Source: Synechococcus sp. MIT S9220 (GTDB taxonomy: Bacteria; Cyanobacteriota; Cyanobacteriia; PCC-6307; Cyanobiaceae). From it: 64,000 nt of DNA. The translations under genes and the position numbers were made by a program. Below the pieces are notes generated by a model, which saw nothing but the letters and a program-made list of their open reading frames with translations, was not told the DNA's origin and ran no database searches. Where the stretch lies: the NCBI RefSeq assembly GCF_014304815.1, contig NZ_CP047958.1:2294001-2358000 (forward strand). Direction: 5' to 3'. Numbering within the stretch: position 1 is the stretch's first letter; the number at the start of each line of letters is the position of its first letter. Shown one piece after another: positions 6,402 to 55,179 of the stretch.

Positions 6402-6431
6402 AGCCCTCTGCCAATGCAGGGGGCTTTTTTT
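6402..6431 (+). terminator. Rho-independent terminator after hsp20
   Basis: A 10-bp stem AGCCCTCTGC / GCAGGGGGCT (one G-T wobble) at 6402-6411 and 6416-6425 encloses a CAAT loop and runs into seven T residues (6425-6431). It ends the hsp20 transcript and lies before the TRAP operon. Confidence 0.9.
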
Positions 6432-6518
6432 GATTGCGAAACCAGGATCAAACCGGGGGCGATCGATAATCTTGCCCAGACAGCGTCGTCTACCAGGCGA
6501 CCAAACCAGGAGCACGTG

Positions 6519-7643
6519 ATGCAACGTCGGCAGCTGCTCCGGACCAGTGGGCAAGCGCTAGCCGCTGCAGCCGGAGCCGGAGCACTGAGCGCCTGCACGA
6601 TTCGTCGTGCTGAAAACGGTGGCAGCAGCAGCCTTCCCCAGGTGCGCTGGCGGATGGCAACAAGCTGGCCGGTTTCACTCGACACCATTTACGGAGGTGC
6701 CGAAACCATCTGTGAACAGGTGAAGGCGATGAGTGGCGGAGGGTTCACGATCGAACCGTTTGCCGCCGGTGAAATTGTTCCCGGACTTGAAGTGCTGGAT
6801 GCCGTGCAAGCCGGCTCCGTGGAATGCGGCCATACGGCCAGCTACTACTACGTGGGCAAGAATCCCGCGTTCGCCTTCGGCACTGCCGTGCCATTCGGGC
6901 TCACGGCCCAGCAACAGAATGCCTGGCTCTATCAGGGAGGCGGCAATGAAGCGATGGACGCCTTGTTCGCCGACTTCGGAGCCAAGAGCTTCCCAGCCGG
7001 CAACACCGGCGGCCAGCTGGGCGGCTGGTTCAAGCGACCTGTCGACAACCTGGCATCCCTCAAGGGTTTGAAGATGCGCATCCCAGGACTGGGAGGCAAG
7101 GTGATGGCCAGCCTGGGGGTGAATGTTCAAGTCTTGCCAGGCGGCGAGATCTATCTGGCACTGGAACGGGGAGCGATCGACGCAGCGGAGTTCACCGGCC
7201 CCTACGACGACGAAAAACTCGGACTCCCCAAAGCAGCGAAGTACTACTACTACCCAGGCTGGTGGGAACCAGGGCCAAGCCTGACCGCGCTGGTCAACCG
7301 CACGGCCTGGGAGAAATTGCCGGAGGAGTATCAGGCCATGTTCAGCACAGCCTGTTACCAGGCGAATCTGGGCATGCTCAGCAAGTACGAACAACGCAAC
7401 AGCGAGGCGCTGCTGAGGCTGCGGCGACAGGGAATCAAACTTGAGGCCTACAGCAACGACATTCTCGAAGCAGCCAAGGAAGCCACCAACGTGTTGTTTG
7501 CAGATCTGGCGGCTGACGATGCCGGCTTCCGAGATTTACTGGAACGCTGGCGGCTGTTCCAGAAAGAAACGCTGAACTGGAATCGCATCAACGAGCTGCC
7601 GCTGGCGAAGTTCAACACCAGGGCCGAGGGAGGTGAAGGATGA
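6519..7643 (+). CDS. TRAP transporter solute-binding protein (DctP/TakP type)
   Basis: This is the periplasmic receptor (374 residues) of a tripartite ATP-independent transporter. The N-terminus has twin arginines (R3-R4) and a lipobox-like LSAC ending at C26, so it is probably exported by Tat and lipid-anchored. Family hallmarks include SVECGHTASYYYVGKNPAF, the KMRIPGLGGKV segment whose Arg usually binds the ligand carboxylate, and AAEFTGPYDDEKLGL. The pattern resembles the alpha-keto-acid (TakP) and cyanobacterial glutamate (GtrC) receptors, so a carboxylate ligand is likely, but the exact one is not readable. I chose ATG 6519 over the upstream in-frame start at 6414, which lies inside the hsp20 terminator. 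It overlaps the small permease gene by 4 nt. Confidence 0.9.
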   Translation: MQRRQLLRTSGQALAAAAGAGALSACTIRRAENGGSSSLPQVRWRMATSWPVSLDTIYGGAETICEQVKAMSGGGFTIEPFAAGEIVPGLEVLDAVQAGSVECGHTASYYYVGKNPAFAFGTAVPFGLTAQQQNAWLYQGGGNEAMDALFADFGAKSFPAGNTGGQLGGWFKRPVDNLASLKGLKMRIPGLGGKVMASLGVNVQVLPGGEIYLALERGAIDAAEFTGPYDDEKLGLPKAAKYYYYPGWWEPGPSLTALVNRTAWEKLPEEYQAMFSTACYQANLGMLSKYEQRNSEALLRLRRQGIKLEAYSNDILEAAKEATNVLFADLAADDAGFRDLLERWRLFQKETLNWNRINELPLAKFNTRAEGGEG

Positions 7644-28100: not shown

Positions 28101-31100
28101 AGCACGGAGCATTCCCTCAGCTCCTCTTCACTGACATTCACTGCAGCCAACTGGAATACAGCTCAGACCATCACCATCACCGGTGCCAATGACGCCATCG
28201 TTGATGGCGACATCACCACCACACTCACCGCCATCGCCTCCAATTCAGGCGGCTACGCAGGCACTGAAACAGCCACCACCACGATCAAAAACACCGACGA
28301 CGACAGCGCCGGCATCACCATTGCCCAAACCGGCAGCACCGACGGCTCAGGCAATCTCCTCACCACAGAAGCAGGCTCCACCTCCACTTTCACCGTTGTT
28401 CTGGATGCCAAACCAACGGCCAATGTCACCGTCTCCATCACTGGGGCTGACAGCACGGAGCATTCCCTCAGCTCCTCGTCGCTGACATTCACTGCAGCCA
28501 ACTGGAATACAGCTCAGACCATCACCGTCACAGGAGTCGACGACAACCTTGACGATGGCGACATCATCACCACACTCACCGCCACTGCTTCCAACACAGG
28601 CGGCTACGCAGGCACTGAAACAGCCACCACCACGATCAAAAACACTGACAACGACAGTTCCGGAATCAGCATTGCCCAGACCGGAACCACCGATGGCTCA
28701 GGCAATCTCCTCACCACAGAAGCAGGTGGCTCATCCGCTTTCAGCATTGTTCTTGACAATGAACCAACAGCCAATGTCACGGTCACCCTCACCGGTGCCG
28801 ACAGCACGGAGCATTCCCTCAGCTCCTCATCGCTGACCTTCACAACCGCTAACTGGGATACAGCTCAAACCATCACCATCACGGGAGTTGACGACAACCT
28901 CGACGATGGTGACATCACCACCACACTCACCGCCACCGCTTCCAATACAGGGGGGTTTTCGGGATCAAAAGCTGTCTCGACAATCGTTAAAAACGCGGAC
29001 AACGACAGTTCCGGCATCACCATTGCTCAGACCGGAACCACCGATGGCTCAGGCAATCTCCTCACCACAGAAGCAGGTGGCTCCTCCACATTCACTGTTG
29101 TTCTTGATGCTCAACCCACGGCCAATGTCACCGTCACCCTCACAGGTGCCGACAGCACGGAGCATTCCCTCAGCTCCTCGTCGCTGACATTCACAACCGC
29201 TAACTGGGATACAGCTCAAACCGTCACCATCACGGGAGTTGATGAAAACCTTCTCGATGGCGACATCACCACCACACTCACCGCCACCGCTTCCAATACA
29301 GGTGGTTATGCCGGCACTGAAACAGCAACAACCACGGTCAAAACAACCGACAACGAAACAGCAGGCATCACCATTGCCCAGACCGGAACCACCGATGGCT
29401 CAGGCAATCTCCTCACCACAGAAGCAGGTGGCTCCTCCACATTCACTGTTGTTCTTGATGCTCAACCCACGGCCGATGTCACCGTCACCCTCACAGGTGC
29501 CGACAGCACGGAGCATTCCCTCAGCTCCTCGTCGCTGACATTCACTGCAGACAACTGGAATACAGCTCAAACCATCACCGTCACCGGTGCCAATGACAGT
29601 CTCGTTGATGGCGATATCACCACCACACTCACCGCCACCGCTTCCAACACAGGTGGTTATGCCGGCACCGAAACAGCAACAACCACGGTCAAAACAACCG
29701 ACAACGAAACAGCAGGCATCACCATTGCCCAGACCGGAACCACCGATGGCTCAGGCAATCTCCTCACCACAGAAGCAGGCTCCACTTCCACTTTCACCGT
29801 TGTTCTTGATGCCAAACCAACTGCCGATGTCACCGTCACCCTCACAGGTGCCGACAGCACGGAGCATTCCCTCAGCTCCTCGTCGCTGACATTCACAACC
29901 GCTAACTGGAATACAGCTCAAACCGTCACCGTCACTGGTGTTGATGACAATCTTCAGGATGGCGACATCACCACCACACTCACCGCCACTGCTTCCAACA
30001 CAGGTGGTTATGCCGGCACCGAGACAGCAAACACCACGGCTAAGAACACTGACAATGACAATCCACCTTCGATTTCCGATCAAAGTGAAGATGTTCTAGA
30101 GAATATAAGCAGCGGGAGCGAAATACTCGATCTAAATGACAACACTTCAAGCAATGATACAGATAAAGATGGTGATTCAATTACTTACTCAATCACCGAT
30201 GGCAATGACCTAGACCTCTTTGAGATTGAATCCAGCACAGGAAAGATATTACTAGCAGCGGGAAAATCTCTCGATCACGACAAGAGTGATTTGCATACCT
30301 TAGAAATATCTGCAACAGATGGAACTCTGACGACAACAGCAGAGATCAGCATTAATGTGATCGATGTCAATAATGCACCAGTAGCGGAAGCAGATAGTGG
30401 GTCCGTGAATGAAAACGAAACACTCAACATTACGGCAGCTTCCGGGCTCATACTCAGCAACGATACTGATGAAGACGGGGACAGCTTAGTAATCAATAGT
30501 TTCCATGCTGGTGTACTCAGTGCAAGCTCGCCACGCGTCGGTCAATTCAACACAGCGCTCGATGGCGACTTTGGACAACTGACACTACAGACGGATGGAT
30601 CATTCAGCTATATCGCCAACAAGTCGACAGCAGATGCACTTGCTGGCGGAGAAACAGAAAGCGACATATTTTCATACAGACTCAGCGATGGAAAACTAAC
30701 CGACTCAACAGAACTAACCATCACCATTACAGGTGTCAACGACGATCCATTTCTCGTCGACGCAATTAAGACAAAAAAATATATTGAGGGTCAAGGGAAT
30801 GTCATCGTCATCGACGGCAGTCTTGATATACGTGATATCGATGACACCAATATTGAATCCGCAACCGTCACAATCTCCAGTGACACATATGTCAGCTCAG
30901 AAGATCAACTCGCATTCACAAATGCTTACGGGGTATCAGGAAGCTGGAATTCCACGACAGGTGTACTGACGCTGAGCGGATCAACAACAAAGGCGAATTA
31001 CGTCAGCGCACTCCAAACAGTCACATACACCAATACCGATGATGCAGACCCTGTGATTGGTGCAAGGACTATTGATTGGGTTGTCAACGACGGCGACACA

Positions 31101-41239: not shown

Positions 41240-42367
41240 TTGGACTCCTCATCTCCCTTTGGAAGCTTTCTGAACAATCTGTCCGGTGAATGGCAGATCA
41301 ACCTCGAAAGCCGGATCCCACGCAAGGAGCTTTACGAGGCCCGAATCGCTTCATCGAAACCCTCACTCGGTTTTTTCGTGCTGCTGCTGTGCGCAGCGGT
41401 GATCGCCACGCTGGGACTGATCTCCAACAGCGCCGCAGTAGTGATCGGAGCGATGATCGTGGCACCGCTGATGGACCCAATCCTCAGCCTCGCTTTTGCA
41501 CTCTCGATCAGCAACAACAAGCTGGCAAAGCGCTCGCTGCTGACGGTGGTGATCGGCGTGCTCACCGTGGTTGCCACCTCAGCATTGCTGGCATCACTGC
41601 TGGATGTGAGTGAAGTGAATCGAGAGATGACCTCCCGCACAGCTCCCAACCTGATCGACCTGGGCATAGCTGTAGCGGCGGCTGTGGCCGGATCATTCAG
41701 CATGACCCGTGAACGGCTCTCCAATTCACTGGCCGGAGTCGCAGTCGCCGTGGCGCTGGTTCCACCGCTGTGCGTCTGCGGTATCGGCCTGAGCATGGGC
41801 AAAGAGGTGGTGGCAGTGTTTGGTCGCGGCACCGTGGCCGGCATCACCAATCAGATTTCCGAAGGCTCCTTCCTGTTGTTCCTCGCCAACCTGATCGGAA
41901 TCACGGTGGCGAGCCTGTTCGTCTTCCTTGTGCAGCGCTACGGAAGCCTTGTTCATTGCTGGCGAAATCTTTTGCTTTGGTTGGGTCTGCTTGGACTGTT
42001 ATGCATTCCACTGTCCTCCGCGCTGCACGATTTCAGCATCAAGCAGGAGATTGAAAGTAAGTTCGATGCTTTTAAAGCAGGGCAGGTCCGTGAGCTCAAA
42101 GTCACCAGCGATAACCCCTATCTCTGGCAAAGAGTACGGATGCTGTTCAGCAACGTTCGCGTAAGTAACAACAATGCCACTGTGGATTTGGTCTTCAGCG
42201 CACCTAAAGGGGTGCTTACAGAAGACTTAGCCAACAATCTTTCTGCAGCCCTTGTGAAGAGAGGGAAAGAAGATCTTGGCCTTGAGGACATCAATGTAAC
42301 GATCAGCGTGATACCAAATCAGATCAATAAATACAGCGACACATCATCGCCGCCACAAACGCAATGA
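41240..42367 (+). CDS. DUF389 (TIGR00341-type) membrane protein
   Basis: The 375-residue integral-membrane protein belongs to the DUF389 family. The signature lies early: FFVLLLCAAVIATLGLISNS, AVVIGAMIVAPLMDPILSLA and VAVALVPPLCVCGIGLSMG. It has about six membrane segments in residues 40-270. The C-terminal ~110 residues form a soluble domain (VRELKVTSDNPYLWQRVRML and NNATVDLVFSAPKG). Biochemical function is not established for the family. The start is TTG 41240. Its stop overlaps the next small gene (ATGA, 42364-42367). Confidence 0.88.
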   Translation: MDSSSPFGSFLNNLSGEWQINLESRIPRKELYEARIASSKPSLGFFVLLLCAAVIATLGLISNSAAVVIGAMIVAPLMDPILSLAFALSISNNKLAKRSLLTVVIGVLTVVATSALLASLLDVSEVNREMTSRTAPNLIDLGIAVAAAVAGSFSMTRERLSNSLAGVAVAVALVPPLCVCGIGLSMGKEVVAVFGRGTVAGITNQISEGSFLLFLANLIGITVASLFVFLVQRYGSLVHCWRNLLLWLGLLGLLCIPLSSALHDFSIKQEIESKFDAFKAGQVRELKVTSDNPYLWQRVRMLFSNVRVSNNNATVDLVFSAPKGVLTEDLANNLSAALVKRGKEDLGLEDINVTISVIPNQINKYSDTSSPPQTQ

Positions 42368-43314: not shown

Positions 43315-44598
43315 TTGCAGGCTGCTGTGCAACATCATTGTCACCGGGCACCACTGATCCGAAAGCGCTTGCTGTTGGTGGGGCTTCTCTGCACAGCTGG
43401 GCTACTGAGCTCTTGCAGCAGCAGCGGTCGAACACCGATCAAAATGCTGCGGGTGGCCCGCATCATGCCCACCGATGAAACAGTCACCCCGGCTGACAGC
43501 TCTAGGGACCGGAAACGTCTGCGCAGCTTTCAGACCAATCTTGGGGATGTGGTCCCAGGCTTGCGTATCCAACCCGCTCTCTATTCAGAATCTGTCGTCC
43601 AATCGGAACTGGCACGCCAGACCTCTAGCGGACTGGGTCCAGATCTGGTGATGGGCGATGCCCGCCTCATCCAGGAACTCTACGAAGCAAAGCTGCTGGA
43701 TCCGGTGCCCATCACACCAGAACAACGCAACGCCATCGCACCAGGCTTACTGCAACGCGTCACCAACTCGCGTGGCGAAGTCACAGGTCTTCCGGTCTCC
43801 CAGCACCTCCAGCTCGCCTGTTACGACAAACGCAAACTCAAAGAGCCGCCGACAACGCTGGCACTGATGTCCAAACAAAGCGGTGAGGGTCAGGTGTTTG
43901 GCATCGCCCAGAGCGTTGAAGACCTCTACTGGAGCATGAGCGGGTTCAAAGCGGGCAACGCACTGGTGAGTTCCCTGCGAGGCCAACAACCCACTGCTCA
44001 ACAAAATCAGCGTTTGGTTCGCTGGCTGAGCTGGCTGCGGGATGCCAGCTATCAGCAGAACGTGATGTTCCTCAGGGATCAGGCCACCCTGCGCAGACAG
44101 TTGATTGATGGCCAACTGCACTGGATCAGCTGCTGGAGCTCACAGTTACCTCAACTGAGAGAAGCGATGAAAGACAATCTCGGCATGTCCCTTTTGCCCG
44201 CTGGCCCCGAAGCTCCGGGCACGCCCATCAGCAAACTCCAGGTGTGGGGTCTGGGGCGCAACTCCAGTCCACGCCAGCGGCAAACCGCTGAAGAGCTGAT
44301 GCAATTCATCGTTCAACCCTGGGCCCAGAAGACCTGGGCACTTCGTTTTCGCACCAACTACCCCGTGAATCCCGCAGCGGCCACAATCATCAACCGCCAG
44401 ATCCCTGGAATCAAGAATCTCTATATCTTCAAAGGTAAGGAAGACATCAAAGTTGGCGATGAAATTGTCGCTGCCATCGATTCAAATCCAAAACTTGCCA
44501 AAACCATTCAAAACATCATCAATGATGTGATCTTTGGGGCGAAAACTCCCGCCAACGCAGCTAAGCAACTGCAGACCGTTTTGAGGTCATCCTCATGA
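43315..44598 (+). CDS. Lipoprotein solute-binding protein (SBP family 1-like), channel-linked copy A
   Basis: The 427-residue lipoprotein has an n-region with IRKR, a hydrophobic stretch and a lipobox LLSSC with C34. The mature part looks like a family-1 extracellular solute-binding protein: SGLGPDLVMGDARLIQELYE, VTGLPVSQHLQLACYDKRKL and NLGMSLLPAGPEAPGTPISK. It is clearly paralogous to the 52673 gene (shared NSSPRQRxxA block). No ABC permease or ATPase of an importer is adjacent; instead its stop overlaps an MscS channel gene by 4 nt. Compared with copy B it has a ~60-residue C-terminal extension. The start is TTG 43315, preceded by GAAAGGA. The ligand is unknown. Confidence 0.82.
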   Translation: MQAAVQHHCHRAPLIRKRLLLVGLLCTAGLLSSCSSSGRTPIKMLRVARIMPTDETVTPADSSRDRKRLRSFQTNLGDVVPGLRIQPALYSESVVQSELARQTSSGLGPDLVMGDARLIQELYEAKLLDPVPITPEQRNAIAPGLLQRVTNSRGEVTGLPVSQHLQLACYDKRKLKEPPTTLALMSKQSGEGQVFGIAQSVEDLYWSMSGFKAGNALVSSLRGQQPTAQQNQRLVRWLSWLRDASYQQNVMFLRDQATLRRQLIDGQLHWISCWSSQLPQLREAMKDNLGMSLLPAGPEAPGTPISKLQVWGLGRNSSPRQRQTAEELMQFIVQPWAQKTWALRFRTNYPVNPAAATIINRQIPGIKNLYIFKGKEDIKVGDEIVAAIDSNPKLAKTIQNIINDVIFGAKTPANAAKQLQTVLRSSS

Positions 44599-45977
44599 TG
44601 CTCACCTTCTCCAATCTTCTGATCACGGTGGCTCCAGGAGACATCCTGGTCGAAATGCTCAGTTGGCTGTCGTTTGTGGAGCGCTGGCCTGTTCTGATTC
44701 AGTTAATCCTGGTGCTAGTTGTGCTCCTAATTGCGCGTACACGCAGCATCCTTCTTAGGCGCAACCAACATCTCCAGCGCCTTCTCAACCGAGCAGGCCT
44801 ACATCAACGCTTACCGGATTCAATCCGCGTGCTGTTGGGGCCCGCTCTGGTGCTTTTGATCGCAGAAGTCTTCGCACTCGTACAAGTTCCCTACGGACTG
44901 CTGCGTTACTTCGGACTGCTCTGGCTGGGCTGGAATCTATTCACTCCCTTGAAAGTGTTGGTGGAAAAAACCAATCCTCGCTTTCCAATCGGAGAAGTGG
45001 AAACAAGCCTGTTCAAACCGATCTATGTCTTCGCAGCCACGTTGTCGCTGCTGAGCTTGCTTGGTAGTAGGGAAAATTTGGCGAGAATTGGGGTCGCCAA
45101 TCTCTTCGGAGTTGAGATGTCGCTCGGCAAAATGTATACGGCCGTTGTGGCGATCTACCTAATCGTGACCATTGCCTCCAGGCCTGCAGCACTGATGGCC
45201 TGGCTCAGCGGAGTGATCTTTGGAGTCAAGAAAAACAATCAGCGCGGTCTGGAGTTGTTGTTCCGATACAGCGTGATCGGCATCGGCATCACCGGTGTGG
45301 CCTATTACATCGGCATCGACGGCACTGCCTTTATCGCAATCGCAGGTGGATTGTCAGTAGGAATTGGTTTTGGTACCAAGGAAATCATCTCCAACTTCAT
45401 CAGCAGCATCTGGCTGCTCTTCGAAGGATCAGTCCGACCTGGGGAGATCCTGATGATCAATGGTGATCCCTGCACGGTACGGAAACTGGGTTTGCGCGCC
45501 ACACAATTGAGGCGAGGTCGTGATGGCGCCGAACTGCTAATTCCCAATCAGAATTTTTTCACCCAGGAGGCCGCTTCTTATACAGCGACTGAAACCTCAA
45601 GGCGCGACAGCGTATTTGTGAGTGCCGCCTATCAACACGACCCCGAAATGATCATCGACATGCTGTTGGAGATCGCGGCAGAGCATTCCAAAGTGAAGAC
45701 GTATCCGCCTGCAGCGGCATTTGTCATTGAATTCGCAGACTCCTCGATCAACTACAAAATGTCATTCTGGGTCTCAAACCCCCTCGATGCCTTCAACGTG
45801 GGTAGTGATCTTCGTCGTGCGATCTGGAAGCGCTTCGAGAAAGACAACATCAGTATTCCCTTCCCTCAGCGTCAGATCTACCCAATGGAATGGCCTCCAA
45901 GCACAAGCCAAAGCCTCAAGCCCCAGCTGCAAGCGGAGCAGGTGATTAACCAGGACACTCCAGACGACGTGAGCTAG
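44595..45977 (+). CDS. MscS-family mechanosensitive channel, SBP-linked copy A
   Basis: The 460-residue channel protein has about seven hydrophobic segments; the pore helix and loop are in AFIAIAGGLSVGIGFGTKEI, followed by the MscS beta domain (LLFEGSVRPGEILMINGDPC, KLGLRATQLRRGRDGAELLI ending PNQ) and an alpha/beta C-terminus. The pattern is closest to the MscK/YjeP-type MscS core but without their large periplasmic N-terminal domain. It should open under membrane tension to release small solutes. The ATG 44595 overlaps the lipoprotein gene stop (ATGA). It is paralogous to 53905 and is followed after 25 bp by a third channel gene. Confidence 0.9.
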   Translation: MMLTFSNLLITVAPGDILVEMLSWLSFVERWPVLIQLILVLVVLLIARTRSILLRRNQHLQRLLNRAGLHQRLPDSIRVLLGPALVLLIAEVFALVQVPYGLLRYFGLLWLGWNLFTPLKVLVEKTNPRFPIGEVETSLFKPIYVFAATLSLLSLLGSRENLARIGVANLFGVEMSLGKMYTAVVAIYLIVTIASRPAALMAWLSGVIFGVKKNNQRGLELLFRYSVIGIGITGVAYYIGIDGTAFIAIAGGLSVGIGFGTKEIISNFISSIWLLFEGSVRPGEILMINGDPCTVRKLGLRATQLRRGRDGAELLIPNQNFFTQEAASYTATETSRRDSVFVSAAYQHDPEMIIDMLLEIAAEHSKVKTYPPAAAFVIEFADSSINYKMSFWVSNPLDAFNVGSDLRRAIWKRFEKDNISIPFPQRQIYPMEWPPSTSQSLKPQLQAEQVINQDTPDDVS

Positions 45978-46002
45978 GTTCGCGACAGCGAAGCAGGGTC
46001 GC

Positions 46003-47112
46003 GTGACTCAGTCTCATTTGGCCGCGAAGTTACACCTCCAGTTCCTGCAAACCAACCTCGGATTACTGGTTGGAACCCTGGCTCTTCTCGGTGCCTGGGT
46101 AACACTTCAGATGTTGAGCCGCCATGGACGCAACATGGGCAGCCATCTCGCAGCAGCCCTGCGGCGCCCTGTTCTGTTCGGACTTGGCGTTTCTCTCTAT
46201 GCCAGCTGGATCATCCATCAACTGAACAAAGAGCTTGGACTCGGGCTAGTCGCTCAGTCTCAAGTGAACAAAATCTCCACAACTCTGGTGATCGCCAGCA
46301 TCACCTGGGCAGTGATGAATATCGGCCAAACCGTGGTGCGATCTGCATCGATGAGGCGATGGATTCGAATCGAGGACCAGCAGGATGAAGCCATGCTGAT
46401 CAACGTGATGAGCAGGCTTTACACTATTTTTGTGCTTCTTGTTGCGACCGCAGTTCTAATGGTGAACTTCGGAGTTCCGTCGGGAGCCATTGCCACGATG
46501 CTGGGCGGAGCAGGCATCGGCTTATCCTTCGCGACCCAACAAATCAGTCAGAACTTTCTCTCTGGCTTCATGCTGTTTTTCAACCGCCCATTCCGCGAAG
46601 GCGACTGGATCAACGCAAACAACCTGGAAGGGACGGTTGAAAACATTGGCTGGTACTACACCAGAATTCGTACTTTTGACCGCCGGCCCTTATATATACC
46701 GAATTCAGTCTTTGCAACAAACCCGATTGAAAATCCAGGCGAAATGTATAACCGCAGAATTCGCGCCAATATCAGTTTGCGCTATGAAGATTTAGGGAAG
46801 ATTGATGGCATTTCCAAAGAAGTTCGCAATCACCTTCGGCAACATCCAGACATTGATCAGAGCCAAAGCATTCTTGTGAACTTCAACGAATGGGATTCAT
46901 CGTCCATCAACATGATGGTTTATTGCTTCACCAAAACAACGGTATGGAAAGACTGGCTTGATATTCAACAATCCATTTTTCTTGATATTGCTGGCATTGT
47001 TCAACGCAGCGGCGCTGATTTTGCCTTTGACTGCACCACGCTGTATCCAGCACCAGGCTCCGATTCGAACACCCTCATCAATTCACTGAATCGAAGCAAC
47101 CCAACGTCATGA
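46003..47112 (+). CDS. MscS-family mechanosensitive channel (second subtype)
   Basis: The 369-residue channel has four or five hydrophobic segments, a pore-helix region VPSGAIATMLGGAGIGLSFA, and the MscS beta domain (NRPFREGDWINANNLEGTVE with YYTRIRTFDRRPLYIPNSVF). Its sequence differs clearly from the 44595 and 53905 channels and lies nearer the small general-type MscS proteins. It starts at GTG 46003, 25 bp after the preceding channel, so they are probably one operon. It has no lipoprotein partner of its own. Confidence 0.9.
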   Translation: MTQSHLAAKLHLQFLQTNLGLLVGTLALLGAWVTLQMLSRHGRNMGSHLAAALRRPVLFGLGVSLYASWIIHQLNKELGLGLVAQSQVNKISTTLVIASITWAVMNIGQTVVRSASMRRWIRIEDQQDEAMLINVMSRLYTIFVLLVATAVLMVNFGVPSGAIATMLGGAGIGLSFATQQISQNFLSGFMLFFNRPFREGDWINANNLEGTVENIGWYYTRIRTFDRRPLYIPNSVFATNPIENPGEMYNRRIRANISLRYEDLGKIDGISKEVRNHLRQHPDIDQSQSILVNFNEWDSSSINMMVYCFTKTTVWKDWLDIQQSIFLDIAGIVQRSGADFAFDCTTLYPAPGSDSNTLINSLNRSNPTS

Positions 47113-47129
47113 GAGCCGAATCCGCTCGG

Positions 47130-47918
47130 TTAGCTGGACGCCGAGGTGTAATGACGCAGTGCAAACAACCAAAAGCTCCGGGCAGCGGCAAAAAACACTG
47201 CTGACAAGACAACACCCAAGGCCAGCAAGGGGAGTGAAGCCCGACCAAGCAGCACCTCAGCAGGCACTGTGGTGAGAAACGCCACAGGAACCACCAAAGT
47301 GAACAGCAGCCTCAACGGCGCGGGATAAGCCTCAAGGGGATAGCGCCCAGACGCCAACACGGCCCGCAGCACTTCTGTGGCGTTCCAAGTCTTCACAAAC
47401 CAGATGCTGGTGGCAGCAATCAGAAACCACAGCGAATAAAGGATCACTGCGGCAACCAACAGCATCAGCAACACGGTGACCAGCACAGCTGGGGTCAACA
47501 CGACACCGGATTGGTGCGCGCCCCAAGCGGCCAGGCCTAGGCCCAGAACGACTTCAGACAGTCCCGCTGGAGCGAAGGTGCGCAGTGACACCCAGAACTG
47601 ACTGTCGATCGGTTTGAGCAGCACAAAATCAAGGTTGCCCTCACGCACATAGGTGACGATCGCTCCCAGGTTGGGCCTCAGCCAGGCGGTCGTCATACCG
47701 TCGAACACGGTGTAAAACCCCTGAACGATCAAAGCCTGGTTCCAGTTCCATCCCCCAAGCTCCCGGCCGGGACCAAAGAAAAGAGACAACAGCAACAGGC
47801 TGCCGCCGAGGCTGAGGACCACGGCCAGCAGCTCCACCACCACATTCAGCTGATATTCCAGCTGGGTGGCCAGAGCGGTGCCCCAGAAACGGCGCAAGGT
47901 TCGCCAGTAGCGCCCCAT
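47130..47918 (-). CDS. ABC-2 exporter permease (DUF990-like), second subunit
   Basis: The 262-residue membrane protein has six predicted membrane segments (for example LLAVVLSLGGSLLLLSLFFG and LLMLLVAAVILYSLWFLIAA). The periplasmic-side GNLDFVLLKPIDSQFWVSLR block is typical of the DUF990-type ABC-2 permeases found as pairs with an ATPase. I use ATG 47918 (MGRYWRTLRRFWGTAL); the longer frame to 48041 adds a Cys/Trp-rich leader inside the neighbouring gene. It lies 1 bp from the upstream permease gene. Substrate unknown. Confidence 0.88.
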   Translation of the reverse strand: MGRYWRTLRRFWGTALATQLEYQLNVVVELLAVVLSLGGSLLLLSLFFGPGRELGGWNWNQALIVQGFYTVFDGMTTAWLRPNLGAIVTYVREGNLDFVLLKPIDSQFWVSLRTFAPAGLSEVVLGLGLAAWGAHQSGVVLTPAVLVTVLLMLLVAAVILYSLWFLIAATSIWFVKTWNATEVLRAVLASGRYPLEAYPAPLRLLFTLVVPVAFLTTVPAEVLLGRASLPLLALGVVLSAVFFAAARSFWLFALRHYTSASS

Positions 47919-47919
47919 C

Positions 47920-48717
47920 TCAGGCCCCCATGGCGCTGTAGCGCCGAACACCGGCTCGCCAAAGCAACAACACCAGCGGCAGAAGCAAGCCCACCCATGC
48001 CAACTGTGCAGCGAAACCTGCTGCCAGATCCACCGAATCACCCGACAAAACCCGAGCTGGAAAATCGATCAGATAGGGGAAAGGTGTCCAGCGCACCCAG
48101 GCCTGCACAGCAGGTGGGAAGGCCGTTAAGGGAGCCAGCAGTCCGGAGAGGAACAGAAAAGGCAGAAACAGCAACCGCTCCAGCGCCGTGGCTTTCTCAC
48201 TCCAGAAACACAACGATGCAATCAGGCTCTGAAGCAAAAAAGCGATCGCAAAGGCCATCCAGGTGGCGATCCAAGCCAGCAGAAATCCACCCAGCGATGG
48301 AATCCAGAAGGCTTGCGGCTGAATCAGAAAAAACACACCGGCGATGCCGGCAGCGAAGGGCAGCCGGGTGAGCTGCTCACCCAGGTGCGAGGCCACATAG
48401 CGCCAGAGGGGATGCAACGGTTGAAGCAAATAGGGCGAGAGCCTGCCCAGCAGCGCATCTTCCTCGAAGGCATAAACCATCCAAACCACCGAAAACTGAC
48501 GCACCAGAAAGGCGCTGAGGAAATAACGGTCCAGAGCCACTCCGTCTAAACCCAGTTGAGACCGGGCGTCACTGCCGCTCCAGAGGCTGAGCATGATGAA
48601 CGGCAGCACTCCAGACAAAGCCCAGAGTGCGATCTCAGCGCGGTACTCGAGCATGTGCGCGTACTGACTACCCAACAGAGCGCGCACGATTCGACGATTG
48701 AGCCCGAAGAGACGCAT
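47920..48717 (-). CDS. ABC-2 exporter permease (DUF990-like), first subunit
   Basis: The 265-residue membrane protein has about six hydrophobic segments and the hallmarks of the DUF990-type permease: MLEYRAEIALWALSGVLPFI, then GRLSPYLLQPLHPLWRYVAS. It pairs with the 47130 permease and the ATPase at 48717; all three overlap or abut, so this is one operon transcribed ATPase, permease, permease. Such exporters are common in cyanobacteria but their substrates are not established. Confidence 0.88.
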   Translation of the reverse strand: MRLFGLNRRIVRALLGSQYAHMLEYRAEIALWALSGVLPFIMLSLWSGSDARSQLGLDGVALDRYFLSAFLVRQFSVVWMVYAFEEDALLGRLSPYLLQPLHPLWRYVASHLGEQLTRLPFAAGIAGVFFLIQPQAFWIPSLGGFLLAWIATWMAFAIAFLLQSLIASLCFWSEKATALERLLFLPFLFLSGLLAPLTAFPPAVQAWVRWTPFPYLIDFPARVLSGDSVDLAAGFAAQLAWVGLLLPLVLLLWRAGVRRYSAMGA

Positions 48718-49691
48718 CAGAGGCTTCCCTGGCGAAACAACTCGCCGATCAACTGATCAATCGGAGGGTCATTCACCTCCAGATCACGCACCTCAAAACG
48801 TTCCAGGATCTGTGCCAGAACCCTTGTGAGTGATGCCGGGTCCACCCGCAGGTTGACCTCGCAGTTCTCAAGGCTGTCGAGATGACCCAATCCAGAAAAG
48901 GCTTCGGCAGGAGCGGGCTCTTCCAATTCAAGCCTCACATGGCGCTCTGGAGCGAGACGACTGGTGAGGCGATCCAGGGGACCGTCATGGAACAACTGAC
49001 CCTGGTGAATCAGCAACACACGGGGACAAAGAGCCGTGATGTCAGCCATGTAGTGACTGGTCAATAAAACAGTGGCACCGGTGCGGCGGTTGTACTCGGC
49101 CAGAAACTGGCGCACCCGCAACTGGGCGTTCACATCCAACCCCAGGGTCGGCTCGTCCAGAAACAACAGCTCCGGTTCATGCAGCAAGGCAGCGAGCAGC
49201 TCAGCCTTCATGCGCTGACCCAACGACAACTTGCGCACCGGACGAGTGAGTTCTTCGCCCAGCTCAAGCAGGTCTGACAGCTCGGCAATCCGTCTGCTGG
49301 CAACACGATCCGGAATGCCGTAGACCGCCGCGTTGACGCGTAACGAATCCATCGGCGGCAAATCCCAAATGAGCTGTTGCTTCTGGCCCATCACCAACGT
49401 GATACGCCGCAGAAAATCGGGGTGCCGTCGCTGGGGGTGATGACCAGCCACCAGCACCTGTCCAGAACTGGGATAGATCAAGCCACACAGCATTTTGAGC
49501 GTGGTCGTCTTGCCGGCGCCGTTGGCTCCGAGAAAACCGACCATCTCTCCGGGAGCGATCGCGAACGACACATCCCGAACCGCCGACACATCTCGCTGGC
49601 GCCGACGCAGAAAATGGCGAAGAGTACCGGCCAGGCCAGGCTGCTTGTCAGCGACGCGATACGTCTTGCTCAGCCTTTCGACCTTGATCAA
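48717..49691 (-). CDS. ABC exporter ATP-binding protein
   Basis: The 324-residue ATPase drives the two ABC-2 permeases downstream. Walker A is GANGAGKTTTLKML at about residues 55-68, the Q-loop region is LVMGQKQQLIWDL, the signature is KLSLGQRMKAELL and Walker B is LLFLDEPTLGLD with the H-loop in VLLTSHYMAD. The ~90-residue C-terminal extension (ARLAPERHVRLELEEPAPAE) is typical of exporters of this type. It ends with a 1-bp overlap into the permease gene. Confidence 0.95.
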   Translation of the reverse strand: MIKVERLSKTYRVADKQPGLAGTLRHFLRRRQRDVSAVRDVSFAIAPGEMVGFLGANGAGKTTTLKMLCGLIYPSSGQVLVAGHHPQRRHPDFLRRITLVMGQKQQLIWDLPPMDSLRVNAAVYGIPDRVASRRIAELSDLLELGEELTRPVRKLSLGQRMKAELLAALLHEPELLFLDEPTLGLDVNAQLRVRQFLAEYNRRTGATVLLTSHYMADITALCPRVLLIHQGQLFHDGPLDRLTSRLAPERHVRLELEEPAPAEAFSGLGHLDSLENCEVNLRVDPASLTRVLAQILERFEVRDLEVNDPPIDQLIGELFRQGSL

Positions 49692-49755
49692 AGGAGAGTC
49701 CAGCGGTCACAACCAGAGCTGGGTGAAGGCTAGGGATCTGAGCAGCGCAAGCGAC

Positions 49756-52500
49756 TCAGCTGAGATCCTCCAGACGCCTGCGGGCCAGATCAGCCTGTGA
49801 CTCAGCCTCAGCCAAGTTGGCCTTGCATTCCGCCACCACCGCAGCCGGTGCCTTGTCAGCGAAATTGGGATTAGCCAGTCGACCGGAGAGACCCTTGATC
49901 TCCTTCTCAGCCTTGGCGATGTCCTTCTCCAGACGAGCCTTCAAGGCATCGAGATCCACCAAGCCTTCAATCGGAAGCAGCACCTGAAGCTCACCGCTGA
50001 CACCAGCCAAAGCCTTGGTCACCGGTGCTGCATCCGCCTCAGACGGCGTCATCACCTGAACCGTTTCAGCTCTGGTGAGCGCCGTGATGTCGGCCATCCC
50101 CTGCTGCAGCACCTCAACAAGATCGCCGCGGCCACTCACGAAACGCACCGGAACGGTCTGGGAAGGCTTGAGGCCAGCAACCGCGCGCAGATTGCGCACC
50201 ACGCGGATGGCGGCGATCAACTCGGCAAATGAGGCCTCGAGATCATCATCCAGCGCTGCCTGATTGACGTCCGGCCAGGCCTGAAGTGCCAACAACGTGG
50301 TCTCAGGCTCTGCGGTAACGCTGTGCCATAACTCCTCGGTGAGATGCGGCATCAGCGGATTCAGCATCAGGTGCATCTGACTGATCACCTTGGCCAGCAC
50401 CTGCCGGGCAGTGCGCTGGTCAGCGAGTACCTCAGCGCTGGCGTTGTCCCCTGGATTCAGCCTGCGCTTGCTCAGCTCCAGATACCAGTCGCAAACGTCG
50501 TTCCAAGCAAACTCATACAGCCCCTTGGCCGCTTCCCCCAGGCCGTAACGGCTGTAGCGGTCTGCGGTTTCGCGATTCACCCGGGCCAGGCGCGACAGGA
50601 TCCAACGATCCGCCAACTGCAGAGCAGCAGGATCAGCATCTCCCAATTGAGCCGGAGTCGCACCATCGAGATTCATCAACGCGAAACGGGTGGCGTTCCA
50701 AAGCTTGTTGGCGAAATTGCGTGAGGCTTCAACAGTGGCCGAGGTGTCTGTTTTGCGGTCGTAATCCAGGCGGATGTCCTGACCGGCACCAGCCACTTCC
50801 CTCACCAACGCGAAACGCAGAGCATCAGTGCCGTAACGCTCAATCAACAGCAGCGGATCGATGCCGTTGCCGGCGCTCTTGCTCATCTTGCGGTTCTGCT
50901 CGTCCCTCACCAGGCCGTGGATATAGACGTCCTTGAACGGCATCTCGCCCGTGAAGGCACCAGCCATCATCGTCATCCGGGCCACCCAGAAGAAGATGAT
51001 GTCGAAGCCTGTCACCAGGGTGCTGGTGGGGTACCAGCGCTGCAGATCGGCACTGTTGGCGTTAGGCCAACCCAACGTGGAAAAGGGCCAGAGGCCGCTG
51101 GAGAACCAGGTGTCGAGAACATCCTCGTCCTGCTCAATCACGGCGGCTGAACCGAACGTTTCCTTGGCCTTCTCCAGAGCTTCCGCTTCGTTGCGTGCCA
51201 CCACATAAGGCGTGGTGTCGGTGTACTTGCCACCGGTCTCACTGATCACGAACCAGGCCGGAATGCGATGTCCCCACCACAACTGACGGCTGATGCACCA
51301 GTCACGGATGTCGGTGAGCCAGTCGCGATAGACCTTTTCCCAGCGCTCGGGAATGAAGCGTGGATCCTGCTTCTCAAGCGCTTCACGACAACGGGCTGCC
51401 AACGGCTCGGTCTTAACGAACCACTGCGTGGACAAGAGAGGCTCCACAGGGACCTTGCCACGATCGGAGTGGGGAACACTGTGGCGATAGTCCTCCACCT
51501 TCACCAGCAGACCAAGGTCTTCGAGACCAGCCACCACCGCTTTGCGCGCCTCAAAGCGATCCAGCCCCTCAAACTCACCGGCCTCTTTGTTCATGGTGCC
51601 GTTCTTGCGCATCACCGTGATCTGGGGCAGACCGTGGCGCTGGCCGATGGCGAAATCATTGGGGTCATGGGCAGGCGTCACCTTGACGCAACCAGTACCG
51701 AACTCCTTCTCCACGTGGTCGTCAGCCACGATCGGAATCTCACGACCCACAAAGGGGAGCGTGAGGGTCTGACCCACGAGATGGGCGTAGCGCTCGTCGC
51801 TGGGATTCACCGCCACCGCCGTGTCGCCAAGCATCGTTTCGGGCCGGGTAGTGGCCACTTCCAGATGGCCCTCGCCACTGCTGAGCGGATAACGGAAATG
51901 CCAGAGATGACCATCCACCTCCTTCATTTCCACCTCCAGATCACTCACCGCCGAACCGGAGGCAGGGCACCAATTCACCAGATACTCGCCCCGATAGATC
52001 AGACCCTGCTCATGCAGACGCACAAAGGCTTCTTTGACGGCTTCGCTGAGACCTTCATCCAGGGTGAAACGCTGCCGACCCCAATCCACCGAATAGCCGA
52101 GCCTGCGCAGCTGATCGACGATGCGGCCACCGCTTTCGGCCTTCCACTTCCAGGCCCGCTCCAGAAAGGCATCACGGCCGAGACCATGACGAGTCTTGCC
52201 CTCCTCCTTGAGCTGCTTCTCCAGAATCGTCTGCACCGCGATCGAAGCATGATCCGTGCCGGGGAGACAGAGCACGTTTTTTCCCGCCAAGCGCTGGTAG
52301 CGCACGATCGTGTCGATCAAGGCCGTGTTGAAGGCGTGGCCCATGTGCAGGCTGCCGGTGACGTTCGGAGGGGGGATCACCACCGAAAACGGATCCCCAG
52401 GCGCCTTGGGGTCGGGATGAAAAGCACCTTGCTCCTCCCAGGCCTGCTGCCAGCGGGCCTCGGTGCCCACCGGGTCATAGGTCTTGGCCAGCTCGGACAC
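49756..52500 (-). CDS. valS: Valine--tRNA ligase
   Basis: This class I synthetase charges tRNA-Val. The 914-residue protein has the HIGH-type motif HMGH in [20 protein letters not shown], the editing domain, the KMSKS loop ([20 protein letters not shown]) and the C-terminal coiled coil ([20 protein letters not shown]). ATG 52500 begins [20 protein letters not shown], the standard N-terminus. A 426-codon open frame on the opposite strand (51268-52548) is a mirror effect and was rejected. Confidence 0.98.
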
Positions 52501-52672
52501 AGGACGCGCTCAACAACAGCGATCCATGCTCGCAAAACAGCTGTCTGAACAAACCAAGTCCGCAATATCAACAAGCTGGGCAATCGGGCGAGCTGGATGG
52601 CCCTTGAGAGAGCAGTAGCGAGACAGCCACGAATTTGAAGATCAGAATGGCTCGGTCAATCACTTCTCCACC

Positions 52673-53908
52673 GTGCGTGCTCGGCTTGCAGCCAGCGTCT
52701 TGCTCTCCACCCTGCTGCTCAGCGTCAGCGGTTGCAGTCGCCTCGGCAATGAGCTGCCGGTGATGCTTTACCTGGCCATGGTGATCGACCAGGACAGCAC
52801 GATCGACACCACCACACAGACCGACTTCCGCCAACGCATTGAGCTGATCATCAGCGATTTCCGCAAGATCAAGCCCAACGTGGAAGTGCAGGTCGCGCTT
52901 TACAAGCGCGCCAATCTCAACCAGGAACTGCAGCGCCGCAATGCCTCAGATCTAGGCCCTGACCTGGTGGTCACGGATGCCCCTCAGGCCAATCAATTGC
53001 TGAGTGACGGGCTGACGGACGAGCTTCCTTTGCAGGACTTCAAACGCCAACAAACTGAGACAACGTTGTGGGAGCGGGTGAAGCTCAACGACGGCCGAAT
53101 CACGGCCCAGCCGATCGTGATCTATCCGCAGATCGCCTGCTTCAACAGCGAGACCGTTCAGAGCCCTCCCACCACATTGCAGGAGCTTCTCCAACAGGGC
53201 GCATCCGGGACCCGCATTGGATTGGCGGTGAGCTTCTCGGAAGTGCTGTGGACCGCTGGGAGTCTGGGAGCCATGCAAAGCCTGTCGCGCGCCAACGATG
53301 ACCAGAACCTGAGTGCACAAGACACCGAGTCGCTGGTGGCATGGCTGACCTGGTTGCAACGAGCCAGTGCTCAGCAAAACATCTCCTTTTTCCAGGACCA
53401 GGGGCAACTGGAAAACCTGCTCAACGAGGGTGAGCTCGACTGGGTGAGCTGCAACTCCAACAGCCTGCTGCGACTCAGAGATCTGATGGGCGACAACCTC
53501 GGGGTTTCGCCACTTCCCCGAGGCCCTGCCGGCACCGCAAGCCCCATGAATGCCGTGAGGGTGCTGGCACTCGGAGCGAACTCAAGTCCACGCCAACGTG
53601 AAGTAGCCGTGAGCCTGGCCCAGTTCCTCACCAACCCGATGGTGCAGAGGAATCTGTCGCTGCGCTCCCTTGCTTTCCTGCCAGTGAACCCTGCCGTGTC
53701 TGTGCCGGTGCGGAGTTCCCAAACGCTGGCCACGTTGGTGCAGTCTCGAGAAGATTCGATGCTGCATGAATCAGCCCTGGCACGGCTGGCTCACCATCGC
53801 AACCTCGCTCGCGATGGGTCACAAGTGCTGGTTCCACTGGTGTTTGGAACCTCAAACCCGCGGTCCAGCCTGGATTCCCTGCTCAAAGCCCTGGGGAGTG
53901 GATCATGA
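52673..53908 (+). CDS. Lipoprotein solute-binding protein (SBP family 1-like), channel-linked copy B
   Basis: The 411-residue lipoprotein (C21 in SVSGC) is a paralogue of the 43315 protein. It shares SDLGPDLVVTDAPQANQLLS, ITAQPIVIYPQIACFNSETV and LGANSSPRQREVAVSLAQFL ahead of PVNPA. It lacks the C-terminal extension of copy A. Again no importer permease or ATPase is adjacent, and the stop overlaps an MscS gene by 4 nt (ATGA at 53905). GTG 52673 gives a good signal peptide. The 172-bp divergent region with valS has no other gene. Ligand unknown. Confidence 0.82.
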   Translation: MRARLAASVLLSTLLLSVSGCSRLGNELPVMLYLAMVIDQDSTIDTTTQTDFRQRIELIISDFRKIKPNVEVQVALYKRANLNQELQRRNASDLGPDLVVTDAPQANQLLSDGLTDELPLQDFKRQQTETTLWERVKLNDGRITAQPIVIYPQIACFNSETVQSPPTTLQELLQQGASGTRIGLAVSFSEVLWTAGSLGAMQSLSRANDDQNLSAQDTESLVAWLTWLQRASAQQNISFFQDQGQLENLLNEGELDWVSCNSNSLLRLRDLMGDNLGVSPLPRGPAGTASPMNAVRVLALGANSSPRQREVAVSLAQFLTNPMVQRNLSLRSLAFLPVNPAVSVPVRSSQTLATLVQSREDSMLHESALARLAHHRNLARDGSQVLVPLVFGTSNPRSSLDSLLKALGSGS

Positions 53909-55179
53909 ACCAACTGTTCTGGGAAATCGTCGGCTGGCTGGGTTATCTGCAGCGAACCGCTGTGGTTGCCCAAGTGCTGCTGATCCTTGGACTGACTGTG
54001 GGATGGCACCTGAGCAACCCGCAACGGCGGTTTGAAAGCCTCCATCCGGCACTGAGATTGCTGGTGGCGCCGATCGCCATGTTGTTCATCGCCTGGCTGA
54101 TCGAGCTTCCAGGCGGAAAGACTGGGCTGGTGAGCTACGCCGGCCTCTGCTGGCTGGGCTGGAATCTGCTCAACCTCTTGAACCAACTGCTGCAGCTGCT
54201 ACTGCCTACCTCCAGCGTTCATCAACTGGAAAGTCGTCTGCTCAGACCGCTGTTTCTGCTTCTGGTGGGCTTGAACCTGATCAGCAAGTTCGACAATCCC
54301 GCTGATCTGGGCGTGATCAAGCTGGGCAGCCTCTTCGGTGAGATCCTCACCGTGAACAACCTGGTCGTCGCCCTGCTGGTGACCTATCTACTGCTGGTGG
54401 GCACCAAACTTCCAGCCGCTGGCCTGGCCTGGATGCTGCAGAAACTGCTCAGCTGCAGCGACAGCAGCCGCAAGGCTCTTGAGCTGATCGTCCGCTATTT
54501 GGTCGTTGGCATTGGCATCACGGCTGTGGGGTTTCACATCGGGCTGAACTCCACGGCTCTGGTCGCCATCGCCGGTGGACTGTCCGTGGGCCTTGGCTTC
54601 GGCATCAAGGAGGTCTTCTCCAACTTCATCAGCGGCATCTGGCTGCTGTTTGAAGGGTCAGTGCGTCCAGGCGAAATTTTGATGGTGGATGGAGATCCTT
54701 GCGAAGTGCGCAAGCTGGGCCTGCGCGCCACCTTGCTCTGGCGAGATCGAGACAACGCGGAACTGCTGATTCCCAACCAGATGTTTTTCACCGCGCAAGC
54801 CACTAGTTACACCGCTACCGACCGGATGCGGCGCAGTGAGATCCGTGTTGGTGCCGCCTATCACCATGACCCCCAGCTGGTGCTGAAGCTCTTGGAGCAG
54901 ACAGCTCTGAGCGTGCCAAGAGTGCTGAATCATCCAGCGCCGAGGGCGCTGCAGGTGCACTACGGCGACTCCGCCATCGAATATTCACTGCGCTATTGGA
55001 TCTCCGACCCCATGAACAACATCGGCATTGTGAGTGAGGTGAATCAGGCGATTTGGACAGCGTTCAAACGGGACGGGATTGAAATTCCTTTCCCACAGCA
55101 GGTCAACACCGTGCGTGAGATCCCAGCGTTCAGGAACGAGCCAAACGCTGGTGATAACCCTCCTGTGTCCCTGCGTTGA
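53905..55179 (+). CDS. MscS-family mechanosensitive channel, SBP-linked copy B
   Basis: The 424-residue channel is the close paralogue of the 44595 protein: LVAIAGGLSVGLGFGIKEVF, LLFEGSVRPGEILMVDGDPC and NAELLIPNQMFFTAQATSYT match nearly residue for residue. Seven or so hydrophobic segments precede the MscS beta domain. It is probably opened by membrane tension and lets small solutes out. The ATGA overlap with the lipoprotein gene repeats the arrangement at 44595. Its last 50 bp overlap a convergent oxygenase gene. Confidence 0.9.
   Translation: MNQLFWEIVGWLGYLQRTAVVAQVLLILGLTVGWHLSNPQRRFESLHPALRLLVAPIAMLFIAWLIELPGGKTGLVSYAGLCWLGWNLLNLLNQLLQLLLPTSSVHQLESRLLRPLFLLLVGLNLISKFDNPADLGVIKLGSLFGEILTVNNLVVALLVTYLLLVGTKLPAAGLAWMLQKLLSCSDSSRKALELIVRYLVVGIGITAVGFHIGLNSTALVAIAGGLSVGLGFGIKEVFSNFISGIWLLFEGSVRPGEILMVDGDPCEVRKLGLRATLLWRDRDNAELLIPNQMFFTAQATSYTATDRMRRSEIRVGAAYHHDPQLVLKLLEQTALSVPRVLNHPAPRALQVHYGDSAIEYSLRYWISDPMNNIGIVSEVNQAIWTAFKRDGIEIPFPQQVNTVREIPAFRNEPNAGDNPPVSLR

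What the first reader, a model, noticed from the sequence alone, without database searches (positions are those of the whole stretch)
43315..55179. Duplicated operon joining a solute-binding lipoprotein to an MscS-type channel
Seen: two gene pairs (43315/44595 and 52673/53905) encode paralogous lipoproteins shaped like ABC solute-binding proteins, each overlapping by 4 nt the gene for a closely paralogous MscS channel. No importer permease or ATPase is adjacent in either case. Known: MscK/YjeP-type MscS proteins carry a large periplasmic N-terminal domain; these channels lack it. Inference: the lipoprotein could supply a ligand-sensing periplasmic part in trans, giving a solute-gated or solute-tuned channel. 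The repetition argues against a chance neighbour.
Basis: partly seen in the sequence, partly recalled or inferred. Interest (0 to 1): 0.85.

Follow-up and report, generated by a model that had tools for sequence, protein, structure and literature searches.

The report
Binding-protein lipoprotein paired with MscS channel
In many cyanobacteria a lipoprotein derived from a sugar-import binding protein is encoded right next to one kind of pressure-release channel, which suggests that it has been recruited as a permanent channel partner, although its sugar-binding pocket does not look preserved.

Summary
The window has two pairs of a solute-binding-protein (SBP) lipoprotein and an MscS channel, each with a 4-nt ATGA overlap. 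In 386 sampled genomes of the phylum this SBP family and this MscS subfamily occur only together: 56 loci in 47 genomes, SBP directly upstream each time. In 221 genomes of the window's family 127 of 128 SBP matches are followed by the channel; the last is cut by a contig end. Of 25 next-ranked other SBP loci 11 have an ABC permease as next gene and none an MscS; 0 of 20 next-ranked other MscS loci have such an SBP. The SBP and channel trees show no supported conflict. So the pair is a real, old two-gene unit. The proposed solute gating is not supported: nine testable sugar-contact columns are less conserved than random columns across the family, the importer 'NGPW' loop is gone, and two cysteines (169, 273), probably a disulfide, are (nearly) invariant. 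I favour an SBP-derived, lipid-anchored auxiliary subunit that tunes an MscK-like channel lacking its own periplasmic domain. Complex, ligand and gating are untested.

The parts
43315..44598 (+). SBP-type lipoprotein of pair 1 (P0001; lipobox LSSC34; C169, C273, W206)
   Evidence: Pfam PF13416 74 bits; AF2 mean pLDDT 76.9, VIA-align Z 30.8 to MalE3; relatives are followed by the channel
44595..45977 (+). MscS-superfamily channel of pair 1 (P0002), 4-nt ATGA overlap with the SBP gene
   Evidence: PF00924 and PF21082 over cut-off; profile best PDB hit MscK 7uw5 E 2.3e-57 over profile 138-429; overlap read
52673..53908 (+). SBP-type lipoprotein of pair 2 (P0004; lipobox VSGC21)
   Evidence: PF13416 61.5 bits; 33% identical to pair-1 SBP
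53905..55179 (+). MscS-superfamily channel of pair 2 (P0005), 4-nt ATGA overlap with the SBP gene
   Evidence: PF00924, PF21082 and PF21088 over cut-off; 42% identical to pair-1 channel; overlap read
46003..47112 (+). Third MscS gene of another subfamily, 25 nt after pair 1; an occasional neighbour, not part of the conserved unit
   Evidence: follows the pair in six fetched Synechococcus-type loci (L038, L039, L040, L044, L049, L050)

Best explanation
The pair is one functional unit: an MscK-like MscS channel without a periplasmic domain, plus a (mostly lipid-anchored) periplasmic protein recruited from an ABC sugar importer's binding protein. SHOWN: fold, gene order, near-perfect reciprocal linkage, joint inheritance, loss of most of the importer's sugar-site signature, gain of two (near-)invariant cysteines, and a channel too short for a periplasmic domain. 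INFERRED: the SBP-fold lipoprotein is an auxiliary subunit that docks on the short periplasmic face of the channel (candidate site: the invariant R30...Q36 segment at the outer end of TM1) and replaces in trans the periplasmic domain that MscK and MscM carry in cis, setting the tension threshold or inactivation of a solute-release valve. It is unlikely to gate the channel through one conserved solute bound in the ancestral sugar pocket. My separate estimates: functional partnership about 0.9; physical complex about 0.65; auxiliary subunit rather than solute sensor about 0.5.
For: Linkage: 56 SBP and 56 MscS loci in the same 47 of 386 genomes, each SBP directly upstream; in 221 family genomes 126 of 128 SBP matches by coordinates, plus one whose channel is cut by a contig end (127), the last SBP itself cut by a contig end. 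Of 127 MscS matches there, the one without SBP is a C-terminal fragment. Controls: of 25 next-ranked other SBP loci, 14 have an importer-type permease in the flank, 11 as next gene, none an MscS match; 0 of 20 next-ranked other MscS loci have an SBP match, and 16 of these 20 channels match the profile only from position 134 on. Only the two genes recur in all 22 loci outside the window's family. Trees of 62 pairs: 30 of 34 SBP clades at 95 or more are in the channel tree, 28 of 33 in reverse, 0 conflicts; distance rho 0.91. Divergence: C169 63/63, C273 62/63 (0/25 and 0/25 in the other SBPs), W206 63/63; exactly two Cys after position ~60 in 63/63. Channel R30 and Q36 62/62.
Against: No direct evidence of a complex: no multimer model could be run, and the channel model was poor (mean pLDDT 55.1). 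Tight gene linkage could reflect co-regulation or a shared pathway. C169, W206, C273 and S275 (57 of 63) map next to the cleft (MBP 116, 159, 227, 229 by alignment), so the cleft may be rebuilt rather than dead and could bind a new ligand. Part of the importer signature survives outside the window's family: W48 in 21 of 22 and N314 in 20 of 22 of those SBPs, against 1 and 1 of 41 in the rest. Inside single clades the contact columns are below average but not strikingly so (73 to 95% of random sets higher, 99.9% in one clade). In three SBPs (L080, L083, L092) no lipobox was found. G291 keeps an intact channel with a frameshifted SBP. R30/Q36 may serve the membrane or assembly rather than docking.
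Confidence: 0.5

Rival explanations
1. Solute-tuned channel: the SBP binds a solute in the periplasm, perhaps a compatible solute just released, and its open-closed movement changes the gating of the channel. The ligand differs between lineages, so no single pocket is conserved.
For: SBP fold intact (VIA-align Z 30.8 to maltose-bound MalE3); precedent of binding-protein domains fused to or operonic with prokaryotic ligand-gated channels (PMC549065, passages) and of GluR0 in cyanobacteria (PMC13099474, passages); invariant or nearly invariant residues map near the cleft; W48 and N314 kept outside the window's family.
Against: Nine testable MBP contact columns have mean pairwise identity 0.17 in the 63 SBPs against 0.31 for random columns (99.1% of random sets higher); also below average in the clades of both window copies (0.42 vs 0.50, 79% of random sets higher; 0.40 vs 0.54, 91%). 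In the 10 importer SBPs the same columns are above average (0.68 vs 0.42; 0.6% of random sets reach it).
Confidence: 0.27
2. Recapture: the SBP catches compatible solutes leaking through the channel and hands them to an importer encoded elsewhere (Ggt type), so that carbon is not lost.
For: The genome has a separate SBP-plus-two-permease cluster at G000:1124281-1127053; the Ggt system is thought to re-import leaked glucosylglycerol (PMC6753628, passages). That this cluster is the Ggt system is my assumption.
Against: That importer has its own SBP; the paired SBPs have lost most sugar-site positions that importer SBPs conserve; no importer-type permease in the fetched flanks of 56 of 57 family loci.
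Confidence: 0.08
3. Redox-tuned channel: the two cysteines form a disulfide near the hinge of the SBP that is made or broken with periplasmic redox state, and this state is passed to the channel.
For: C169 63/63, C273 62/63, and exactly two Cys after position ~60 in every SBP; both lie in predicted beta strands (159-171 and 270-274).
Against: A disulfide may be purely structural; no coordinates were available to measure the distance, and L037 lacks C273.
Confidence: 0.07
4. Co-expression only: the two proteins act in the same stress response without touching each other.
For: No interaction data; in the 22 loci outside the window's family the genes are close but do not overlap by 4 nt (gaps -20 to 138).
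Against: Strict reciprocal linkage of these two genes alone over several families, with no other partner in more than 10 of 22 loci, and a channel N-terminal part largely restricted to this subfamily in the sample.
Confidence: 0.08

Closest known systems
MscK (KefA) and MscM (YjeP) of E. coli, MscS superfamily
   Same: Best PDB matches of the channel profile: MscK 7uw5 E 2.3e-57, MscM E 8.4e-47, over profile 138-429 and 133-424
   Different: Full-length MscK and MscM chains are 1120 and 1113 residues; these are 424-460 aa, read as 7 TM helices without a periplasmic domain, and far below the NCBIfam MscK cut-off (123 and 154 of 991 bits)
CUT1-type sugar-binding proteins of ABC importers (MalE, GacH, TMBP; SBP_bac_8)
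   Same: Fold (Z 30.8 MalE3, 29.6 GacH, 29.5 TMBP), lipoprotein signal, Pfam PF13416
   Different: No importer permease beside it; importer NGPW loop and sugar-contact columns not conserved; near-invariant Cys pair instead
Prokaryotic pentameric ligand-gated channels with PBP domains or operonic PBP genes (PMC549065, abstract and passages seen)
   Same: A binding-protein-fold partner for an ion channel, fused or in the same operon
   Different: Unrelated channel family; there a ligand role is proposed, here the pocket positions are not conserved
GluR0, cyanobacterial glutamate-receptor K+ channel (PMC13099474, passages seen)
   Same: A ligand-binding domain attached to a cyanobacterial channel tied to cell volume control
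   Different: One polypeptide and a K+ channel; here two genes and an MscS channel

Membership tests
MscS superfamily | MscS beta-domain (PF00924) and C-terminal domain (PF21082) over cut-off | tested here: met
   P0002 40.5 and 53.7 bits, P0005 36.5 and 53 bits, cut-offs 20.2 and 21
MscS superfamily | Transmembrane helices 2/3 domain PF21088 over cut-off | tested here: inconclusive
   P0005 27.7 (over 23.1), P0002 19.6 (under); the profile aligns through this region with MscK at E 2.3e-57
MscS superfamily | Opens with membrane tension; heptamer | not testable with these tools
   needs patch clamp and a structure
MscK/MscM subfamily | Large N-terminal periplasmic domain in the same polypeptide | tested here: not met
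   424-460 aa; short loops only; NCBIfam MscK 123 and 154 of 991 bits
CUT1/SBP_bac_8 binding proteins | SBP fold and Pfam model | tested here: met
   (74 and 61.5 bits, cut-off 27)
CUT1/SBP_bac_8 binding proteins | Gene next to importer permease | tested here: not met
   importer-type permease in the flank of 1 of 57 family loci, about 1 kb away; 11 of 25 other SBPs have it as next gene
CUT1/SBP_bac_8 binding proteins | Conserved sugar site (NGPW loop, contact positions) | tested here: not met
   N, G, P, W at 273-276: 10 of 10 each in importers, 0, 2, 0, 0 of 63 here; contact columns 0.17 vs 0.31; but W48 kept in 22 of 63
Ligand-gated channels with a binding-protein domain (GluR0, PBP-pLGIC) | Binding-protein fold fused to or operonic with a channel | tested here: met
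   adjacent genes with ATGA overlap in the window; co-transcription itself not tested
Ligand-gated channels with a binding-protein domain (GluR0, PBP-pLGIC) | Channel opened by the ligand | not testable with these tools
   needs binding and patch-clamp data; pocket conservation argues against one shared ligand

The most novel reading that the evidence does not exclude
An ABC-importer binding protein was converted, long ago in cyanobacteria, into an obligate periplasmic regulatory subunit of a mechanosensitive channel: a two-component tension valve whose gating is set from the periplasm by the SBP's conformation, either through lineage-specific ligands or through its near-invariant cysteine pair.
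Probability: 0.3. Interest if true: 0.85.

Novelty: new variant of a known kind. Interest (0 to 1): 0.62.

Why it matters
MscS is the textbook case of a channel gated by membrane tension (recalled); an obligate periplasmic partner would add a control input. It would also be a clear case of a transport receptor re-used as a channel subunit, which is how the glutamate-receptor architecture is thought to have arisen (recalled). The pair occurs in Synechococcus and relatives, whose release of compatible solutes when salinity drops matters for carbon loss from these cells. Either answer, sensor or dead-pocket subunit, can be tested with two genes.

Tried and rejected
Chance neighbour: rejected by reciprocal linkage. 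Recent tandem duplication: rejected; the 43315-type and 52673-type pairs fall in separate clades, and members of both clades occur together in G288 and G205. Importer with a distant permease: weakened, see rivals. SBP-MscS gene fusion: none seen in the fetched loci; I read the long open frames in L065 and L069 as overextended starts. Spread outside the phylum: I could not test it with the genome tool; P0004 had no match in plasmids, and P0005 only partial MscS matches in phage records, at most 63% of the query in the eight rows shown of 16. Third MscS, DUF389 and DUF1400 neighbours as part of the unit: rejected, not conserved across families.

Selection of controls: the 25 other SBP loci are 5 distant matches plus 20 picked from the next-ranked rows, not every row; the 20 other MscS loci were picked from the next-ranked rows, one per genome, with several rows passed over (for example G262 and G354). 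The ten importer SBPs used for the pocket test were my choice among those 25: L094-L101, L104, L105, all with an importer-type permease in the fetched flank; L107, L114, L117 and L118, which also have one, were left out, as were the loci without one.

Channel structure: AF2 model too poor to use beyond secondary structure (pLDDT 55.1). Disulfide distance could not be measured because no coordinates are given. Paralog-matching test: of 45 genome comparisons 23 agree, 0 are opposite and 22 are uninformative (difference under 0.02 in a tree) (one search had counted signs only, 29 and 16). Sigma-70 promoter scan gave 0 sites, fewer than the 3.3 expected; not used. One search carried an off-by-one in MBP numbering and is replaced; in it the loci outside the window's family came out slightly above average (0.51 against 0.45), the other sets of paired SBPs below. 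In one search columns 54-61 look invariant only because few sequences have letters there; ignored. The lipobox count 58 of 63 missed L057 and L059, which read SAGC in that output; the remaining misses are L080, L083, L092.

Literature: seven searches of the held open-access library (lists capped, e.g. 30 of 59, 20 of 62 and 10 of 26) listed no paper whose title or abstract start describes an SBP-MscS unit; passages read in nine papers did not mention one, and one of these has no mechanosensitive passage at all. Subscription papers are mostly not held.
Full report
WHAT IS THERE. The window lies in a genome of 2,424,175 bases in one contig (positions 2294001-2358000). Named relatives of the locus are Synechococcus (titles). 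Pair 1 is an SBP lipoprotein (43315-44598) followed by an MscS channel (44595-45977); pair 2 is 52673-53908 followed by 53905-55179. Each overlap is ATGA. Pfam places both SBPs in SBP_bac_8 and both channels in MscS. The two SBPs are 33% identical and the two channels 42%. Between the pairs lie a third MscS of another subfamily, two ABC-2 membrane proteins and an ABC ATPase on the other strand, and valyl-tRNA synthetase. In the whole genome the SBP profile finds only these two members and the channel profile five MscS-type matches.

IS THE PAIRING REAL. I built profiles from 22 SBPs (A3) and 19 channels (A4). In 386 genomes of the phylum the channel profile gives 56 matches over nearly its whole length at E <= 1.7e-124; the next falls to 1.8e-68 and covers positions 122-430 only. 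The SBP profile gives 55 near-full-length matches down to 1.4e-79, plus G291, whose SBP is split by frameshifts. These are the same 56 places in the same 47 genomes; in the window and the 50 loci fetched for them the SBP is directly upstream of the channel on the same strand. In 221 genomes of the window's family there are 128 SBP and 127 channel matches; 126 SBPs have the channel within 1 kb downstream on the same strand. Of the other two, one shows the start of the channel before its contig ends and one is itself cut by the contig end. The one channel match without an SBP is a C-terminal fragment. The unit is absent from many genomes: 97 of 221 family genomes have the channel, 98 the SBP; 17 of the 20 listed genomes without it are of 1.3-1.9 Mb.

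CONTROLS. Of 25 next-ranked other SBP loci, 14 have an importer-type permease in the flank and 11 have it as next gene; none has an MscS match. Of 20 next-ranked other MscS loci, 0 have an SBP match (E <= 1e-3) in the fetched flanks, roughly 4-5 kb each side and less at one contig end. In 16 of those 20 the channel's match to the profile begins at position 134 or later. Neither control set takes every ranked row (see Tried and rejected). In 22 loci outside the window's family the only gene groups present in all are the SBP and the channel; the next group, a DUF1400 hydrolase, is in 10.

HISTORY. Trees of 62 pairs (quick method) agree: 30 of 34 SBP clades with support 95 or more occur in the channel tree, 28 of 33 the other way, with no conflict among supported clades; patristic distances correlate at rho 0.91. 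In genomes with two pairs, the matching of paralogs between genomes agrees in 23 of 45 comparisons, is opposite in 0 and uninformative in 22. The two window pairs belong to separate old clades. The SBP tree is longer than the channel tree (41.2 against 27.0), so the SBP changes faster. The 4-nt overlap is found in 37 of the 62 pairs (37 of 40 in the window's family and close Synechococcus loci); my script preferred a -4 start where one existed. Outside the family the gaps run from -20 to 138.

THE SBP HAS CHANGED. Fold: AF2 mean pLDDT 76.9; VIA-align Z 30.8 (rmsd 3.3, 350 residues) to maltose-bound MalE3, 29.6 to GacH, 29.5 to the trehalose/maltose-binding protein; Foldseek gives UgpB and MBP. 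Columns that are the same in 10 of 10 importer SBPs are mostly gone in the 63 paired SBPs: W118 0, Y256 1, N273 0, G274 2, P275 0, W276 0, G307 0 of 63. But W48 stays in 22 of 63 and N314 in 21 of 63, almost all of them outside the window's family (21 and 20 of 22). Nine columns aligned to MBP's maltose contacts (contacts recalled; only the stretch printed could be mapped) have mean identity 0.68 in importers (random sets 0.42; 0.6% reach it) but 0.17 in the paired SBPs (random 0.31; 99.1% are higher). Inside clades they are below average to varying degree: 0.42 against 0.50 (16 relatives of pair 1; 79% of random sets higher), 0.40 against 0.54 (7 of pair 2; 91%), 0.19 against 0.43 (16, wider clade of pair 2; 99.9%), 0.31 against 0.45 (22 outside the family; 95%), 0.61 against 0.67 (12 of these; 73%). 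New constraints appear instead: C169 in 63 of 63, C273 in 62 of 63, W206 in 63 of 63, W237 in 62 of 63, with no Cys at 169 or 273 in any of the 25 other SBPs; all 63 have exactly two cysteines after position ~60. The stretch most conserved relative to importers is the 240-249 block of a predicted helix (0.50 against 0.26). C169 and C273 lie in predicted strands, so a disulfide is likely but was not measured. C169, W206, C273 and S275 align to MBP 116, 159, 227 and 229, beside the cleft: the cleft may be rebuilt, not merely abandoned.

THE CHANNEL. Its profile matches MscK best (7uw5, E 2.3e-57), then MscM, from about position 126-138 on. Hydropathy, charges and the AF2 secondary structure fit seven TM helices with the N-terminus outside: loop 49-78 carries 6.5 K+R per sequence, the N-terminal 36 residues 1.8 (the helix count is my reading, as the threshold itself marked five segments). 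No periplasmic domain fits in the loops. R30 and Q36, at the outer end of the first helix, are invariant in 62 of 62.

HOW IT MOST LIKELY WORKS. An importer's binding protein was recruited to a shortened MscK-like channel and became its lipid-anchored auxiliary subunit. Strict pairing, joint inheritance and the shift of constraint from the sugar site to other positions are shown; docking and effect on gating are inferred.

WHAT IS KNOWN. Binding-protein domains fused to or operonic with channels are known for prokaryotic pentameric channels (PMC549065, abstract and passages) and a ligand-binding domain for GluR0 (PMC13099474, passages). Picocyanobacterial studies count MscS genes (24 in PMC9361551, passages; also PMC9948718 and PMC7522525, passages), but the passages I saw do not mention an SBP partner. 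Seven searches of the held library listed no description of this unit. Each component family is known; the pairing is a new variant.

Noticed in passing
window 46003-47112: A third MscS gene of another subfamily begins 25 nt after pair 1; it follows the pair in six fetched Synechococcus-type loci (L038, L039, L040, L044, L049, L050).
   Followed up: partly
window 41240-42367: DUF389/TIGR00341 membrane protein upstream of pair 1, on the same strand; its group is in 8 fetched loci of the window's family.
   Followed up: partly
L078:10829-12529 and nine other loci: A DUF1400 alpha/beta hydrolase lies near the pair in 10 of 22 loci outside the window's family.
   Followed up: partly
L071 (G291) 6000-7245: The SBP gene is split into three overlapping pieces while the channel gene downstream is intact.
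   Followed up: no
L158 (G440:C19): A C-terminal fragment of the paired-type channel and a second, shorter one stand without an SBP, apparently relics.
   Followed up: no
window 28001-32000: GC content falls to 0.50 with GC skew -0.18, the lowest values in the window's 4-kb profile.
   Followed up: no
L102, L103, L106, L108-L113, L115, L116: Eleven other SBPs stand without an importer-type permease or MscS match in the fetched flanks (some on short contigs); their partners are unknown.
   Followed up: no
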